From positions 1-64,000 of the forward strand of contig JAJYDE010000016.1 in the NCBI GenBank assembly GCA_021777755.1: a stretch of 64,000 bases of DNA. Reading direction: 5' to 3'. Under the pieces are notes generated by a model. It searched no databases and was not told where the DNA came from. It saw only the letters and a program-made list of their open reading frames with translations. Numbering within the stretch: the stretch's first letter is position 1; each line of letters begins with the position of its first letter. Of the stretch, positions 57,326 through 63,438 are shown in pieces. Both the position numbers and the translations under genes were made by a program. The stretch comes from Deltaproteobacteria bacterium. GTDB lineage: Bacteria; Desulfobacterota; Syntrophobacteria; Syntrophobacterales; Syntrophobacteraceae.

Positions 57326-58150
57326 ATGCTGATCAAGGAACTGGAACGAAAAGCCGCCGCCGTCCGACGACAGGTGTTGGAAATGGTTGTCTCGGCCAAT
57401 AAAGGCCATATCGGCGGGGCCTTTTCATGCACCGATATTCTCGTTGCGCTCTACTACGGGGGGGGGCTTCGCTGTGACGCCCTGAGGCCGGACCGGCAGG
57501 ACAGGGACCGGTTCATTTTGAGCAAGGGACATTCGGGCATAGCTCAATACGTCATCCTGGCAGACCTGGGGTTTTTCCCGGCCTCCGAGCTGGAAACCTA
57601 TGGAGCAAACCGGAGCATGCTTGGCGGTCACCCGGACAGGAACATCCCGGGGATAGAAGCCGATACCGGCTCACTGGGCCACGGACTGGCGATAGGGGCG
57701 GGGATCGCGCTCGGGGCAAAACTCGATGGCAAACATCATCTTTCGATTGTATTGCTCGGAGACGGCGAGTGTTACGAGGGATCGGTATGGGAGGCGGCAA
57801 TGTTTGCAAGTCACCACCGGCTCGGCAACCTGATCGCCATAGTGGATCGAAACCGTCAGTGCGCGACGGACTTCACGGAAAGTTGCTGCGAGATGGAGCC
57901 TTTCGCGGAGAAGTGGCGGGCTTTCAACTGGGAAACGGTGGAGGTGAACGGCCATTGTCTTGAAGAGTTGCTTGAAGTCTTCAGCACGCTAGGGCACAGA
58001 GAGTCGAATAAGCCGCTGGCCATAGTGGCTCACACCATTAAAGGCAAAGGCGCCACCTGCATGGAAAAAACGGTTGAATGCCACCACATGGTCCCCGAAG
58101 GGGAGCAGTTGTCGGCCGCGCTGGAAGAACTCGCGAGAGGATGCCGATAG
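57326..58150 (+). CDS. Transketolase N-terminal (TPP pyrophosphate-binding) subunit
   Basis: 274 residues. The thiamine diphosphate motif starts at LGDGECYEGS and ends with IVDRN (GDG...N), with KGHSGIAQY and GGHPDRN lining the active site. It is one half of a split transketolase; the other half begins directly after its stop codon. Split transketolases in glycan loci are usually not housekeeping pentose-phosphate enzymes and may transfer a two-carbon ketol unit to or from a sugar intermediate. ATG follows CGGAGGAATTCGAGC. Confidence 0.92.
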   Translation: MLIKELERKAAAVRRQVLEMVVSANKGHIGGAFSCTDILVALYYGGGLRCDALRPDRQDRDRFILSKGHSGIAQYVILADLGFFPASELETYGANRSMLGGHPDRNIPGIEADTGSLGHGLAIGAGIALGAKLDGKHHLSIVLLGDGECYEGSVWEAAMFASHHRLGNLIAIVDRNRQCATDFTESCCEMEPFAEKWRAFNWETVEVNGHCLEELLEVFSTLGHRESNKPLAIVAHTIKGKGATCMEKTVECHHMVPEGEQLSAALEELARGCR

Positions 58151-59098
58151 ATGGCCTCTGAGATCCACAATCCCCGTACCGATATCCGGGACGCTTTTTT
58201 TGACCGGTTATACGACCTTGCGGCCCAAGACAGGGACACTCTCTTCCTTACCGCCGACATGGGCGCGCTCAGCCTCGATAGATTCAAGCGCGACCTTCCG
58301 CGACAATTCATAAACGTTGGCATTTGCGAGCAGTCGCTTGTAAGCATTGCAGCCGGCTTGAGCCTCAGCGGCAAAAAAGTGTTCATCTATGCCATAACCT
58401 CATTCATAACGCAGCGGTGTTATGAACAAATCAGGATCGATCTTTGCGGCATGCGACTCCCCGTTGTCATCGTGGGCTCCGGTCCGGGAATCTGCTATGG
58501 CAGCGACGGGGGCACTCATCACGCAGTCGAGGATATTGCCCTGATGCGGGCGCTGCCAAATCTTTCCATACTCAATCCGTCGGATCCGTTATCGGCATCA
58601 GCCGCCGCGCTCATGGCCCACAAGAGCGCCAACCCCGTTTATGTGCGCCTGGATAAAGGAAAACTGCCGGCCCTGCACCGGGAAGAAGAGGACTTCTCAG
58701 AGGGACTCCGCGTACTGAAAAAAGGGCGAGATGTGATGCTCATCAGCACCGGGGTGATGGTTCATAAAGTTTTCGAACTGGCCGACGAACTCGCAAAGCA
58801 CAATATCGACGCGGGTATTATAGATTTATACAGGATAAAACCGATCAACACGGAACTGCTCCTGTCTTATTTAAACGAGTATAAGAAACTGGTGACAATC
58901 GAGGAACACATCCTCGCGGGCGGTATTGGAAGCGCGATTTGCGAAATAGTCGCCGATCACGGAATCGCAAAACCGGTCAAAAGGATTGCCATCCCAGACA
59001 TTCCATGCTCTCAATATGGCGACCGGGAGTGGATGCATCGGTACTATGGTTTGGATGTACAGACCATGGTTGGATTAATACTTCAAGATTGCCTGTAA
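58151..59098 (+). CDS. Transketolase C-terminal subunit
   Basis: 315 residues containing the pyrimidine-binding domain with INVGICEQSLVS (the catalytic Glu that activates TPP) and GICYGSDGGTHH, then the C-terminal domain (VMLISTGVMVHKVFEL, VTIEEHILAGGIGSAI). The ATG directly abuts the TAG of the N-terminal subunit, so the two are made together. The active TPP site forms only at the interface with the N-terminal partner. The enzyme is also similar to 1-deoxyxylulose-5-phosphate synthase halves, but the split and context favour transketolase. Confidence 0.92.
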   Translation: MASEIHNPRTDIRDAFFDRLYDLAAQDRDTLFLTADMGALSLDRFKRDLPRQFINVGICEQSLVSIAAGLSLSGKKVFIYAITSFITQRCYEQIRIDLCGMRLPVVIVGSGPGICYGSDGGTHHAVEDIALMRALPNLSILNPSDPLSASAAALMAHKSANPVYVRLDKGKLPALHREEEDFSEGLRVLKKGRDVMLISTGVMVHKVFELADELAKHNIDAGIIDLYRIKPINTELLLSYLNEYKKLVTIEEHILAGGIGSAICEIVADHGIAKPVKRIAIPDIPCSQYGDREWMHRYYGLDVQTMVGLILQDCL

Positions 59099-59118: not shown

Positions 59119-61914
59119 ATGCATAAGATCCTGATAATAGTCTTGAGGTACACCCCGTACAAGGAAAAATCGTATTACGAATTTCCTCTGGGATTGGCAT
59201 ACGTTTCCGCATCTTTGAAAAAAGCCGGCCATTTTATCCGGGTGCTGAATTTGAACCATCACGACGGCACTCAATTCGATCTGATAAAATCGGCGCTAGC
59301 CGACGGGGACATTAAATATGTTCTATTGGGCGGCCTGTCCGCGCACTACAGACAACTTAAAAGCATTGTGAACGATGTCAGGAGCGTCCGCGATGATGTG
59401 GTGGTGATTGTGGGCGGCGGGGTCGTTACATCCACTCCCGAGCTTATGTACGATCACCTCGGCCCCGATTGCATTGTGCTTGGCGAAGGCGAATCAACAA
59501 TTGTGGAATTGGTGAACGAACTCGACAATGGCGGGAGGCACTTGGGAGACGTTAGGGGAATAGGCTATCGGAACGGTTCCGGAAATTTCGTAACAACCCC
59601 GCCCCGCGCTCCGATAATGGATCTCGACGCTTTGCCATGGCCCGACCTGGAAGGCTTCGAGTTTGAAACATACCTCGACATGCAAAGGCCAAACGACAGC
59701 CTTTATCTCTACATTAACGACAAACCTCGTTTCTACCCGATAATTTCGAGCCGAGGATGCCCCTATAATTGCACTTTCTGCTATCACCCCCTGGGCCAAA
59801 AGTACAGGAGCCGCTCGGTCGACAATTTCATCGGTGAAGTGGAATATGTCTGCGAAAAGTACAACGTGAACAACCTGGCCATCTTTGACGAGCTTATATC
59901 CGCGGACAGGAATCGGCTCTTCGAAATTTGCGAGCGCTTGAGCGCCATGCCCCGCAAGCTGAACTGGATGTGTCAACTGCGCGTGGACAAAGTCGACGAG
60001 GAAATGCTCGAAACAATGAAGGCTGCGGGCTGTTTTATTATCAGCTACGGTTTTGAAAGCGCCAATGACGATGTGCTCAAAAGCATGAACAAACACATCA
60101 CAAAAGCGCAGATTCAAAGGGCGATGGAACTTACCAGAAAAGCGGGGATAGGAATTCAGGGCTACTTCATTTTTGGAGATCCTTGCGAGACTCGCGAAAC
60201 GGCCCGTGAGACCCTCGATTTTTGGAAACAGCACCAAAGCTACCACATTACCATGGGCTACATCCGGCCATATCCTGGTTCCGTGCTTTGGAAGAGCGCA
60301 ATATCGTCGGGAAATATGAGGACGGCTTCCCAACAGCTCGAATTTCTCGATAGTTGCATATCGGCGCCCCCGAATTTGACCAAGATGAATGAGGCGGAGT
60401 GGTTCGAGTTGCAAAAAGATGTACAGAAGGCAATAATAACAAATGATCATTTCGGAGAATTGGTGGCTTCGAAGAAGAACGCTCCCAATGACTACTCCAT
60501 AACAATTCGGTGCCCGCATTGCATGGAGACCGTAACCTATAATAATTTTCATCAGAGAATCCTGGGTCCATTCAAAATAGCGTGCAGGAAGTGCCACCAG
60601 GCGATGAATATGACGCCGCGCGCGTTTGAAGATTCCTCCGCCGACTTTTCGAAAAACTATGAAGCCTTTCGAACTATTACTTCCGGTCGTGTGCCTGTTA
60701 GCGTAACTCCTTGCATGAATGAAGCCGAATTCGCCGCCATGGCCGACTTGTTCCTTAATGGCGCGCGTATAGTAAATTTTATGGACGCAAGCGAGGCCAA
60801 GGCGAATCGAACATATTTCGGAAAACCCGTACTAAAACGCAATATCGAAAACATTCAGTCATTGTGCGGCGGCCACTACTTTCTCATACCGCTCACTCGC
60901 TTTGCAAACAGGATACTGGATCATCTTCAAGCTTCAGGAGTGCCGAGAGACCATATCTGCCGTCTCGACGAAATCCCGCTCTGTCACCTGGAGCTGGGGC
61001 CAAAAGAGTTTGCCGATCTTTTTGATCTAAGCGTGGACGAGTTGCCGCGGCTCTGCAAGAAGGTCATAGAGGATTCGGACTTCCGCTACAGGATATTGTC
61101 CGGAGCCGAAAGAGAGAATACGATCCTGAGGGTTGTAAAGACACTCATGTCCGAAACTCTCAAAGTATCGGGACCTCACAGGCGAGACGACTGGGAAAGG
61201 GGTTGGACGGAGAATCTTGAAAGCTTTGTTTCCCATGGGCTTGATGTGAATGAATTGATTCCGAAATTTGTTAGAAAAAAAGAAGTGGTGAGGTACAAAG
61301 GCAATTTCATACTTCCTGCCGACTCGAATTTTGAAACCAATTTCGTAAGAGTGCTGCGAAATTATCTTTTCTCCAAATATTTTAAAGATGCCACGAAGGT
61401 TTTCGAATTCGGTTGCGGCACAGGTTTAAATCTTATTGCAATTTCCAAGCTTTATCCCGAGAAAAAACTGTATGGCCTTGATTGGTCCGAAGCTTCGTGT
61501 GAAATCGTCGATAAATTGTCAAGTAAATTGGGCTTGGACTTATCCGCCGTGAGATTCGACATGTTTTCGCCCGATTATGGTATCGAACTCGATAGTCGAA
61601 GCGCCGTGCTGACGGTGGGAGCAATGGAACAGCTCGGGACGAATTTCATGCCATTCGCCAGGTTTTTGCTCAAGAAACAACCTTCCGTTGTCATTAACAT
61701 TGAAGTCAATTATGAGGCGCATGATCGGCAATCTCTTTTCGGGTTTCTGGCCGCGGCATACATTGAGAAACGCAATTATTTGCGCGGATTCTTCGCCTAT
61801 CTGCACGACCTGGCGAATCAAGGCCTGGTTTCAGTACTGGAATCGCGACAGACATTCGGCGGGCTATATCATGACGGGTATGCTTATACGGTCTGGAAGC
61901 CCGGGAAATCGTGA
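59119..61914 (+). CDS. B12-binding radical SAM protein fused to zinc ribbon, Rossmann-like and SAM-methyltransferase domains
   Basis: 931 residues. Residues 1-150 are a B12-binding-like Rossmann domain (FPLGLAYVSASLKKAG, VVIVGGGV, VLGEGEST) without the DxHxxG His, as in class B radical SAM methylases. The radical SAM cluster is SSRGCPYNCTFC (C214, C218, C221). A zinc ribbon follows with C465, C468, C489 and C492. Residues ~520-620 look like a degenerate Rossmann domain (RIVNFMDAS, GKPVLKRNI, GHYFLIPLTRF). Residues ~755-930 are a class I methyltransferase with motif I VFEFGCGTGLNL and acidic LYGLDWSEA. The combination suggests methylation of an unreactive carbon plus a second methyl transfer on the same substrate. 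The ribosome-binding site is weak. Confidence 0.85.
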   Translation: MHKILIIVLRYTPYKEKSYYEFPLGLAYVSASLKKAGHFIRVLNLNHHDGTQFDLIKSALADGDIKYVLLGGLSAHYRQLKSIVNDVRSVRDDVVVIVGGGVVTSTPELMYDHLGPDCIVLGEGESTIVELVNELDNGGRHLGDVRGIGYRNGSGNFVTTPPRAPIMDLDALPWPDLEGFEFETYLDMQRPNDSLYLYINDKPRFYPIISSRGCPYNCTFCYHPLGQKYRSRSVDNFIGEVEYVCEKYNVNNLAIFDELISADRNRLFEICERLSAMPRKLNWMCQLRVDKVDEEMLETMKAAGCFIISYGFESANDDVLKSMNKHITKAQIQRAMELTRKAGIGIQGYFIFGDPCETRETARETLDFWKQHQSYHITMGYIRPYPGSVLWKSAISSGNMRTASQQLEFLDSCISAPPNLTKMNEAEWFELQKDVQKAIITNDHFGELVASKKNAPNDYSITIRCPHCMETVTYNNFHQRILGPFKIACRKCHQAMNMTPRAFEDSSADFSKNYEAFRTITSGRVPVSVTPCMNEAEFAAMADLFLNGARIVNFMDASEAKANRTYFGKPVLKRNIENIQSLCGGHYFLIPLTRFANRILDHLQASGVPRDHICRLDEIPLCHLELGPKEFADLFDLSVDELPRLCKKVIEDSDFRYRILSGAERENTILRVVKTLMSETLKVSGPHRRDDWERGWTENLESFVSHGLDVNELIPKFVRKKEVVRYKGNFILPADSNFETNFVRVLRNYLFSKYFKDATKVFEFGCGTGLNLIAISKLYPEKKLYGLDWSEASCEIVDKLSSKLGLDLSAVRFDMFSPDYGIELDSRSAVLTVGAMEQLGTNFMPFARFLLKKQPSVVINIEVNYEAHDRQSLFGFLAAAYIEKRNYLRGFFAYLHDLANQGLVSVLESRQTFGGLYHDGYAYTVWKPGKS

Positions 61915-62003
61915 AATGAGACCATTTGCTCGATCCAAGTATAAAATAGCCAGAAATATGTATAGCAGGACCAATGCTTACATCGAGATCGTATAGGCTG
62001 AAT

Positions 62004-63026
62004 ATGATAATGGATGATTTCTTGGGAGCATCGTTTGCCGGCAAAAAAATCCTGGTAGCCGGAGGTACCGGAACGATTGGAATTCAGGTGGTAAGGTTAC
62101 TGGTGGATTTGGAAGCCAAGGTCGAAGTGGTATCTGTCGATCCCCCGGAATATGCAAAAAGACTTTTCGACGAACGGGTTTCATTTACCAGGAGCGACCT
62201 GACAATTCTCGAAAACTGCATCGAGGCCACGCGCGGCAAGGATTACGTATTTAATCTCGTAGGCATAAAGGGTTCGACGGGAATCGGGGAAGCAAAGGTT
62301 GCAAGTTACCTGGTGCCAATGCTCTGGTTTCAAACAAACCTGATGGAGGCGGCTTTCAGGAACAAAGTCGAAAGGTACCTGTTTGTAAGCAGTATTTGCG
62401 CCTATCCGCAGTCTGCAATCGCAAAGAGCGAAGAAACCGTATGGGACGGAATGCCCAAGCAAAACGACCGGATCCCGGGGTTGGCGAAAAGAATGGGCGA
62501 AATTCAGGCGGAGGCTTATTTGCTCGAGCACGGATGGGACGCGGTACGGTTGGTTCGGCCTTCGAATGTGTACGGGCCTTACGATGATTTCAATCCTGCA
62601 ACAGCGCAGGTCATTCCCGCGCTCATAGCGCGCATGTGCGGCGGTGAGAACCCGCTGAAGGTCTGGGGGGACGGTTCGGCGATAAGAGATTTTATCTATT
62701 CCGAAGACGTGGCGCATTGGATGCTTGTGGCCTTACTCACAGCCCCAGCGTGCTTTCCGATAAATATCGGCGGCGGCCAGGGGGTTACGATCCGCCGGCT
62801 GGCGGAAATGATCGCACAATACATTCCCGATCCCCCCGTCATCGAATGGGATGCCACGAAGCCCGCGGGCGACCCGAAAAGGCTTCTTTCGACCAAAAGA
62901 GCCGAGGAGTATCTGGGGTACCACGTGATAACCGACCTGGCGGAGGGGATTCGGAAAACGATCGAATGGCACCTCGAAAACCGGCAAAGTCCGAGCAGGG
63001 GAAGGGAGACGCTTCGTGACAACTAG
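62004..63026 (+). CDS. SDR-type NAD-dependent epimerase, GDP-fucose-synthase-like, catalytic Tyr absent
   Basis: 340 residues from ATG at 62004 (AGGCTGAAT upstream; 61974 and 62010 are alternatives). NAD binding: VAGGTGTIGIQVV. VSSICAYPQS matches the catalytic Ser/Cys block of GDP-fucose synthase, and RPSNVYGPYDDFNP and WGDGSAIRDFIYSEDVA are typical. The YxxxK pair is changed: the Lys is present in GLAKRMGE (K162), but the position four residues before it is Pro (P158), not Tyr. The protein may use another acid/base, act as an epimerase only or be non-catalytic. Its place after the radical SAM gene implies the same sugar pathway. Confidence 0.87.
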   Translation: MIMDDFLGASFAGKKILVAGGTGTIGIQVVRLLVDLEAKVEVVSVDPPEYAKRLFDERVSFTRSDLTILENCIEATRGKDYVFNLVGIKGSTGIGEAKVASYLVPMLWFQTNLMEAAFRNKVERYLFVSSICAYPQSAIAKSEETVWDGMPKQNDRIPGLAKRMGEIQAEAYLLEHGWDAVRLVRPSNVYGPYDDFNPATAQVIPALIARMCGGENPLKVWGDGSAIRDFIYSEDVAHWMLVALLTAPACFPINIGGGQGVTIRRLAEMIAQYIPDPPVIEWDATKPAGDPKRLLSTKRAEEYLGYHVITDLAEGIRKTIEWHLENRQSPSRGRETLRDN

Positions 63027-63438
63027 TGGCCGCCAATTCACTCTGCCATTGGCAGAGCTTGCAGACAGGCTGACCGTGGATCAAATCAAGGAGGTGCTGG
63101 TTCCGGAGCACAGGGAAAGTTTTTCCCTGGAGATGGAGAAAATCTCCCACGACATCGATTTGATCATAGCCGAAAAGGACCTCCGATTGTCGTCGCGACT
63201 CATTCGAATCATTATCGCCCTGGCTCAGTTGAATCTCCACATCTGGCACAACAAGGACCTGATGCAGAAGGATGCCGGCAGGTATATGGAATTGCTGAAA
63301 CTGTCTCATCAGCTAAACGGGATCAGAAATCAGTTGAAGAACCTGCTCCTGGAGGAAACGGGCGAACGGGAAAAATCCGCGGAAAGATCGAACTTCAATA
63401 CCGACGGACTTGAAAACTGGACCGTAAGCATAAGATAG
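63016..63438 (+). CDS. Helical hypothetical protein in the glycan locus, 140 aa
   Basis: GTG start at 63016 with GGGAG eight bases upstream, overlapping the end of the epimerase gene by 11 bases. The product is mostly helical, with charged helices alternating with LIRIIIALAQLNLHIW and LKLSHQLNGIRNQLKNL. No membrane span, cysteine cluster or known domain is seen. It lies between two enzyme genes and is probably co-transcribed; it may be a small structural partner. I do not recognise the family. Confidence 0.65.
   Translation: MTTSGRQFTLPLAELADRLTVDQIKEVLVPEHRESFSLEMEKISHDIDLIIAEKDLRLSSRLIRIIIALAQLNLHIWHNKDLMQKDAGRYMELLKLSHQLNGIRNQLKNLLLEETGEREKSAERSNFNTDGLENWTVSIR

What the first reader, a model, noticed from the sequence alone, without database searches (positions are those of the whole stretch)
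59119..61914. 931-residue fusion joining two methylation chemistries
One chain carries a B12-binding-like domain and radical SAM centre (methylates carbon) plus a separate class I SAM methyltransferase (usually O- or N-directed), with a zinc ribbon and an extra Rossmann-like domain between. The fusion implies one substrate is methylated twice, or that the C-terminal domain finishes the radical product.
Basis: partly seen in the sequence, partly recalled or inferred. Interest (0 to 1): 0.65.

Follow-up and report, generated by a model that had tools for sequence, protein, structure and literature searches.

The report
B12 radical enzyme fused to methyltransferase
One bacterium has joined, end to end, two sugar-modifying enzymes that are separate proteins in every other relative found; the joined protein is real, but that it performs two methylations on one molecule is unproven.

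Summary
ORF 59119-61914 (+, 931 aa) carries a B12-binding domain, a radical SAM domain (CPYNCTFC), a four-cysteine zinc-ribbon-like segment, a weakly supported Rossmann-like segment, and an intact class I SAM methyltransferase (model of that part: pLDDT 93; invariant SAM motifs). Residues 1-620 are a standalone protein family of about 560-650 aa (44% identical homologue in G411). Residues 626-931 are another standalone family (about 300-350 aa), unfused to any radical SAM enzyme in 11 bacterial loci and 41 viral contigs, usually just downstream of a split transketolase pair. Two viral contigs show the window's gene order with nothing between transketolase and methyltransferase, so the radical SAM gene most likely came between them and was joined to the second. 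No other copy of this fusion turned up; ten same-genus genomes lack the methyltransferase half. The best-matching named relatives of the radical SAM half (HpnJ, AprD4) are not methylases. A different B12-radical SAM-methyltransferase fusion is conserved in other genomes, so the arrangement has precedent. Best reading: a lineage-specific fusion of two tailoring steps in a branched nucleotide-sugar pathway.

The parts
59119..61914 (+). 931-aa fusion protein: B12/radical SAM enzyme joined to a class I SAM methyltransferase
59176..59511 (+). B12-binding (Rossmann) domain, res 20-131
   Evidence: Pfam PF02310 E 3.6e-16
59740..60222 (+). Radical SAM domain, res 208-368; cluster cysteines C214, C218, C221 (CPYNCTFC)
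   Evidence: Pfam PF04055 E 7e-20; cysteines invariant in 12 relatives
60511..60594 (+). Four-cysteine zinc-ribbon-like segment, res 465-492 (C465, C468, C489, C492)
   Evidence: invariant in 12 relatives; zinc binding inferred
60640..60969 (+). Rossmann-like segment, about res 508-617, part of the radical SAM protein family
   Evidence: present in the unfused 622-aa homogue of G411; weak hhalign support only
60970..60993 (+). Junction, about res 618-625, no in-frame ATG and no long linker
60994..61911 (+). Class I SAM methyltransferase module, res 626-931 (motif EFGCG, acidic D788-W789, invariant T832, E837, Q838, R885 in protein numbering)
57326..58150 (+). Split transketolase, N-terminal (ThDP-binding) subunit
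   Evidence: Pfam PF00456; recurs beside the methyltransferase family
58151..59098 (+). Split transketolase, C-terminal subunit; ends 20 bases before the fusion gene
   Evidence: Pfam PF02779/PF02780
56290..57282 (+). GDP-mannose/NDP-sugar 4,6-dehydratase-like SDR
   Evidence: Pfam PF16363 E 7e-74; 54-71% identical homologues in related clusters
61974..63026 (+). Fucose-synthase-like SDR
   Evidence: 51-54% identical in viral cassettes L061 and L080
63016..63438 (+). 140-aa protein of no known family, conserved in the cassette
   Evidence: no Pfam, NCBIfam or PHROG match; 38-43% homologues in L061, L075, L080, L082, L088
63444..64000 (+). Aldo/keto reductase (389 aa, runs past the window end)

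Best explanation
A lineage-specific gene fusion inside a cell-surface (O-antigen/capsule type) nucleotide-sugar operon. SHOWN: the first 620 residues are a member of a standalone family of B12-binding/radical SAM/zinc-ribbon proteins, the last 306 a member of a standalone class I methyltransferase family that usually sits just after a split transketolase pair; in this genome the radical SAM gene lies between transketolase and methyltransferase and is joined in frame to the latter. INFERRED: an NDP-4-keto sugar made by the dehydratase-like SDR receives a two-carbon ketol unit from the split transketolase; SDR and aldo/keto reductase enzymes reduce it; the radical SAM half does one radical step on the sugar (C-methylation, or a redox/dehydration/rearrangement step as in its AprD4 and HpnJ relatives); the C-terminal half independently methylates it (O-methylation most likely) with its own SAM. 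Fusion keeps two tailoring enzymes of one pathway together and in 1:1 ratio; it need not couple their reactions.
For: 44% identical unfused 622-aa homologue spanning res 3-617; 12-member alignment of the standalone radical SAM family; unfused methyltransferase in 11 bacterial loci and 41 viral contigs; methyltransferase just downstream of transketolase in most loci; L061 and L080 carry transketolase N, transketolase C, methyltransferase, SDR2, U140, AKR in the window's order with no radical SAM gene between; Azospirillum argentinense has transketolase N, C, radical SAM, then a different methyltransferase; rest of the operon adds RmlC-like, SDR, GHMP kinase and second transketolase genes. Split transketolase is proposed to transfer a hydroxyacetyl unit to a keto sugar in miharamycin/amipurimycin (PMC12247030).
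Against: The reactions of both halves are inferred from family and context only. The fusion is known from one draft genome (103 contigs), so a strain-specific or sequence error at the junction cannot be excluded without reads. In 9 of the related bacterial loci a different B12-radical SAM gene often lies nearby, which leaves room for a closer functional tie than chance neighbourhood.
Confidence: 0.6

Rival explanations
1. A true dual methylase: the radical SAM half puts a methyl group on a carbon of a sugar and the C-terminal half methylates the same molecule (O or N), the fusion channelling the product.
For: Most cobalamin-dependent radical SAM enzymes methylate (PMC13142503); PhpK P-methylase and MCR glutamine C-methylase models also score on the first half; SAM sites of both halves look intact; a separate B12-radical SAM gene lies within several unfused methyltransferase clusters.
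Against: Best-scoring relatives HpnJ and AprD4 are not methylases; the nearby radical SAM genes of the other clusters are only 24-30% identical to this one; most viral cassettes show no such gene at all (2 of 32 records, though many are fragments).
Confidence: 0.25
2. An artefact: two adjacent genes joined in the assembly by a lost stop codon or a small sequence error at the junction.
For: Only one copy of this fusion found in the sampled genomes; draft genome; the junction falls exactly where the two standalone proteins end and begin.
Against: The reading frame runs through without interruption and there is no ATG or obvious ribosome site for a second start near the junction; a single error would have to remove both the stop and the start.
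Confidence: 0.1
3. The methyltransferase half has lost catalysis and serves as a docking or structural module.
For: Enzyme domains do become structural after fusion (general knowledge); 29-40% identity to relatives.
Against: All columns invariant in the 9-member and 29-member family alignments, SAM motifs included, are kept in the window protein, and the model has the canonical fold.
Confidence: 0.05

Closest known systems
Standalone B12-binding/radical SAM/zinc-ribbon proteins of about 560-650 aa in polysaccharide loci (e.g. 622-aa protein of G411, L033; A. argentinense WP_ for locus ABAZ39_RS35340)
   Same: Whole of residues 1-620, all Cys ligands
   Different: They end there; none carries this methyltransferase
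Class I SAM methyltransferase family beside split transketolases (Azospirillum sp. TSA2s E6C67_RS04285; viral contigs L061, L080)
   Same: Residues 626-931, SAM motifs, gene neighbourhood
   Different: They are free proteins of about 300-350 aa; in Azospirillum sp. B510 the same domain is joined to a glycosyltransferase-type region instead
B12-binding/radical SAM/Methyltransf_11 proteins of about 700 aa (G194 L121, G855 L122, G903 L119)
   Same: Same order of functions: B12, radical SAM, class I methyltransferase in one chain
   Different: 61-80% identical to each other, 30% to the window protein in the radical SAM half only; the methyltransferase is another family with no BLAST match; different neighbours
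HpnJ (TIGR03471) and AprD4
   Same: Best NCBIfam score and best PDB sequence match for the radical SAM half
   Different: HpnJ score 168 bits against a cut-off of 578; neither has a methyltransferase domain

Membership tests
Radical SAM superfamily (PF04055) | CxxxCxxC cluster motif in a radical SAM domain above the Pfam cut-off | tested here: met
   72.3 bits against 29.5; C214, C218, C221 invariant
Cobalamin-dependent radical SAM enzymes | N-terminal B12-binding Rossmann domain | tested here: met
   PF02310 59.5 bits against 32.1
Cobalamin-dependent radical SAM enzymes | Cobalamin actually bound | not testable with these tools
   Lower-ligand residue varies among known members (PMC13331322), so sequence does not decide
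Cobalamin-dependent radical SAM methylases | Transfers a methyl group to carbon or phosphorus; curated methylase model matched above cut-off | tested here: inconclusive
   No NCBIfam equivalog reaches its cut-off; top scores are HpnJ, then PhpK, BchE
HpnJ (TIGR03471) | Score above the curated cut-off of 577.6 bits | tested here: not met
   168.5 bits
AprD4 family (NF033070) | Score above the curated cut-off of 500 bits | tested here: not met
   99.4 bits
Class I SAM methyltransferases | Rossmann-like class I fold with glycine-rich SAM loop and acidic residue at the end of strand 2 | tested here: met
   EFGCG and DW invariant; model and structural matches
Split-transketolase-linked methyltransferase family (defined here by alignment A1/A3) | Similarity over the whole 306 residues and position after transketolase subunits | tested here: met
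   29-40% identity; position as, with the radical SAM segment interposed

The most novel reading that the evidence does not exclude
A single chain that performs radical C-methylation and polar O-methylation in tandem on one transketolase-branched nucleotide sugar, with direct hand-over between the two active sites.
Probability: 0.15. Interest if true: 0.55.

Novelty: new variant of a known kind. Interest (0 to 1): 0.3.

Why it matters
The fusion ties an uncharacterised B12-radical SAM subfamily to a defined pathway: a split transketolase, a dehydratase-like SDR and a conserved methyltransferase. That gives a concrete list of candidate substrates (branched nucleotide sugars) for two orphan enzyme families. 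As a gene fusion it is only a single case, and a comparable arrangement already exists elsewhere, so by itself it changes little; the more general result is the conserved split-transketolase/methyltransferase sugar cassette shared by bacteria and viral contigs.

Tried and rejected
Single-sequence structure prediction of the methyltransferase half failed (pLDDT 36); it was replaced by a 29-sequence alignment. The one genome-contig scan, spent on the single sequence, returned only distant radical SAM matches. Viral contigs gave no relative of the radical SAM half by pattern scan. Neither the methyltransferase half was found in the annotated phage collection, nor does it match PHROGs. An overlooked internal start at the junction was considered and rejected. 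Fusion as an ancestral state was considered and rejected: all of the other methyltransferase homologues lack the radical SAM part, and the window protein does not branch apart from them in the tree, whose deeper forks are weak. The structural neighbours of the methyltransferase include N-, O- and C-methylating enzymes at similar Z, so the target atom cannot be read from the fold. Literature searches for a described B12-radical SAM/methyltransferase fusion found none, but the library lacks most subscription papers.

Full report
OBSERVATION. Four invariant cysteines at 465, 468, 489 and 492 form the zinc-ribbon-like segment.

TWO PROTEINS IN ONE. A whole-genome search with the C-terminal part in 395 genomes of the phylum found six unfused methyltransferase homologues covering residues from about 625 to 930, and one genome (G411) matching only residues 459-617. 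In G411 that match is a 622-aa protein aligning with residues 3-617 of the window protein at 44% identity and stopping there. A further set of relatives of the first half (G356, G234, G256, G285, G112, G243, G329, two Azospirillum plasmids) are likewise free proteins of about 550-650 aa, one of 827 aa.

THE METHYLTRANSFERASE FAMILY. Unfused homologues occur in 11 bacterial loci: six in the window's phylum, three in a second phylum and two Azospirillum plasmids, one of which has the domain joined to a glycosyltransferase-type region. A scan of IMG/VR with the family alignment gave 41 more, all free of any radical SAM part. Of 32 of these viral records, 11 carry a large terminase, so at least those are phage. 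All family alignments keep the SAM-binding motif EFGCG, the acidic DW at the end of strand 2, and invariant T, E, Q, G, E and R residues. An AlphaFold2 model of residues 626-931 built with 28 viral homologues has mean pLDDT 93 and matches class I methyltransferases in complex with SAM or SAH, NodS and others, at Z about 15.

CONTEXT. In the window the gene follows a split transketolase (57326-58150, 58151-59098; 20 bases apart from the fusion gene) and precedes an SDR, a 140-aa protein without known family, and aldo/keto reductases; beyond the window come a TylF-like methyltransferase, further SDRs, an RmlC-like epimerase, a second split transketolase and a GHMP kinase. The methyltransferase family lies shortly downstream of a split transketolase in most loci. 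Two viral loci, L061 and L080 (the latter on a 548-kb contig with a terminase), carry transketolase N, transketolase C, methyltransferase, SDR2, the 140-aa protein and aldo/keto reductase in the window's order with nothing between transketolase and methyltransferase. Azospirillum argentinense shows transketolase N, C, a radical SAM protein of this family and then an unrelated methyltransferase. The simplest history is that a radical SAM gene came to lie between transketolase and methyltransferase and was then joined to the latter.

HOW FREQUENT. The fusion was seen once. None of 38 other genomes of the order, ten of them in the genus, has the methyltransferase half at all, nor did 85 genomes of the class of G411 or five of the class of G084 show the fusion. 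It is thus a local event in a horizontally variable locus, and conservation gives no support for a functional need. An independent fusion of the same kind does exist: 700-aa B12-binding/radical SAM/Methyltransf_11 proteins in G194, G855 and G903 (and a contig-end fragment in G849) that are 61-80% identical to one another, share a neighbouring gene, and share with the window protein only 30% identity in the radical SAM half. The combination of functions in one chain is therefore not new.

MECHANISM. For the first half, the strongest NCBIfam score is HpnJ, well below its cut-off, followed by PhpK, BchE and ladderane-type proteins; the best PDB sequence match is AprD4. HpnJ and BchE are listed among cobalamin-dependent radical SAM enzymes that do not methylate (PMC13142503) and AprD4 is a radical SAM diol dehydratase acting on an aminoglycoside sugar with an NADPH-dependent reductase partner (PMC5461906). 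Since most members of the wider class do methylate, C-methylation remains possible but is not implied. Split transketolases are proposed to move a hydroxyacetyl unit onto keto sugars in miharamycin and amipurimycin (PMC12247030). I therefore take the pathway to make a branched, methylated nucleotide sugar for a surface glycan, with the radical SAM half doing one radical step and the C-terminal half an independent methylation, O-methylation most likely. The pathway assignment is inference from gene content; the order of steps is open.

VERDICT. New variant of a known kind; moderate to low interest as a fusion, with the shared bacterial/viral sugar cassette as the more general lead.

Noticed in passing
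L061-L101 (IMG/VR contigs), especially L080:3247-10912 and L061:1-10892: The split-transketolase/methyltransferase/SDR/140-aa/aldo-keto reductase sugar cassette of the window occurs in viral contigs, 11 of 32 with a terminase, one on a 548-kb contig; the methyltransferase is absent from 50,697 annotated phage records and from PHROGs.
   Followed up: partly
L121:1152-3251, L122:6550-8646, L119:1976-4141, L120:1398-3089: An independent, conserved 700-aa B12-binding/radical SAM/Methyltransf_11 fusion beside a conserved 260-aa gene with no Pfam match.
   Followed up: partly
63016-63438: 140-aa protein of no known family, conserved with the cassette, present twice in tandem in L080.
   Followed up: no
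L061:872-2903, L032:13396-15505, L060:10454-12449: Several related clusters carry a second ThDP enzyme pair, of the dehydrogenase E1 alpha/beta type, next to the split transketolase.
   Followed up: no
L015:7977-10817: In Azospirillum sp. B510 the same methyltransferase domain is joined to a region annotated as glycosyltransferase (946 aa).
   Followed up: no
L118:6972-11105: 1378-aa open frame in G119 with two radical SAM regions and a glycosyltransferase region between them; runs to the contig end.
   Followed up: no
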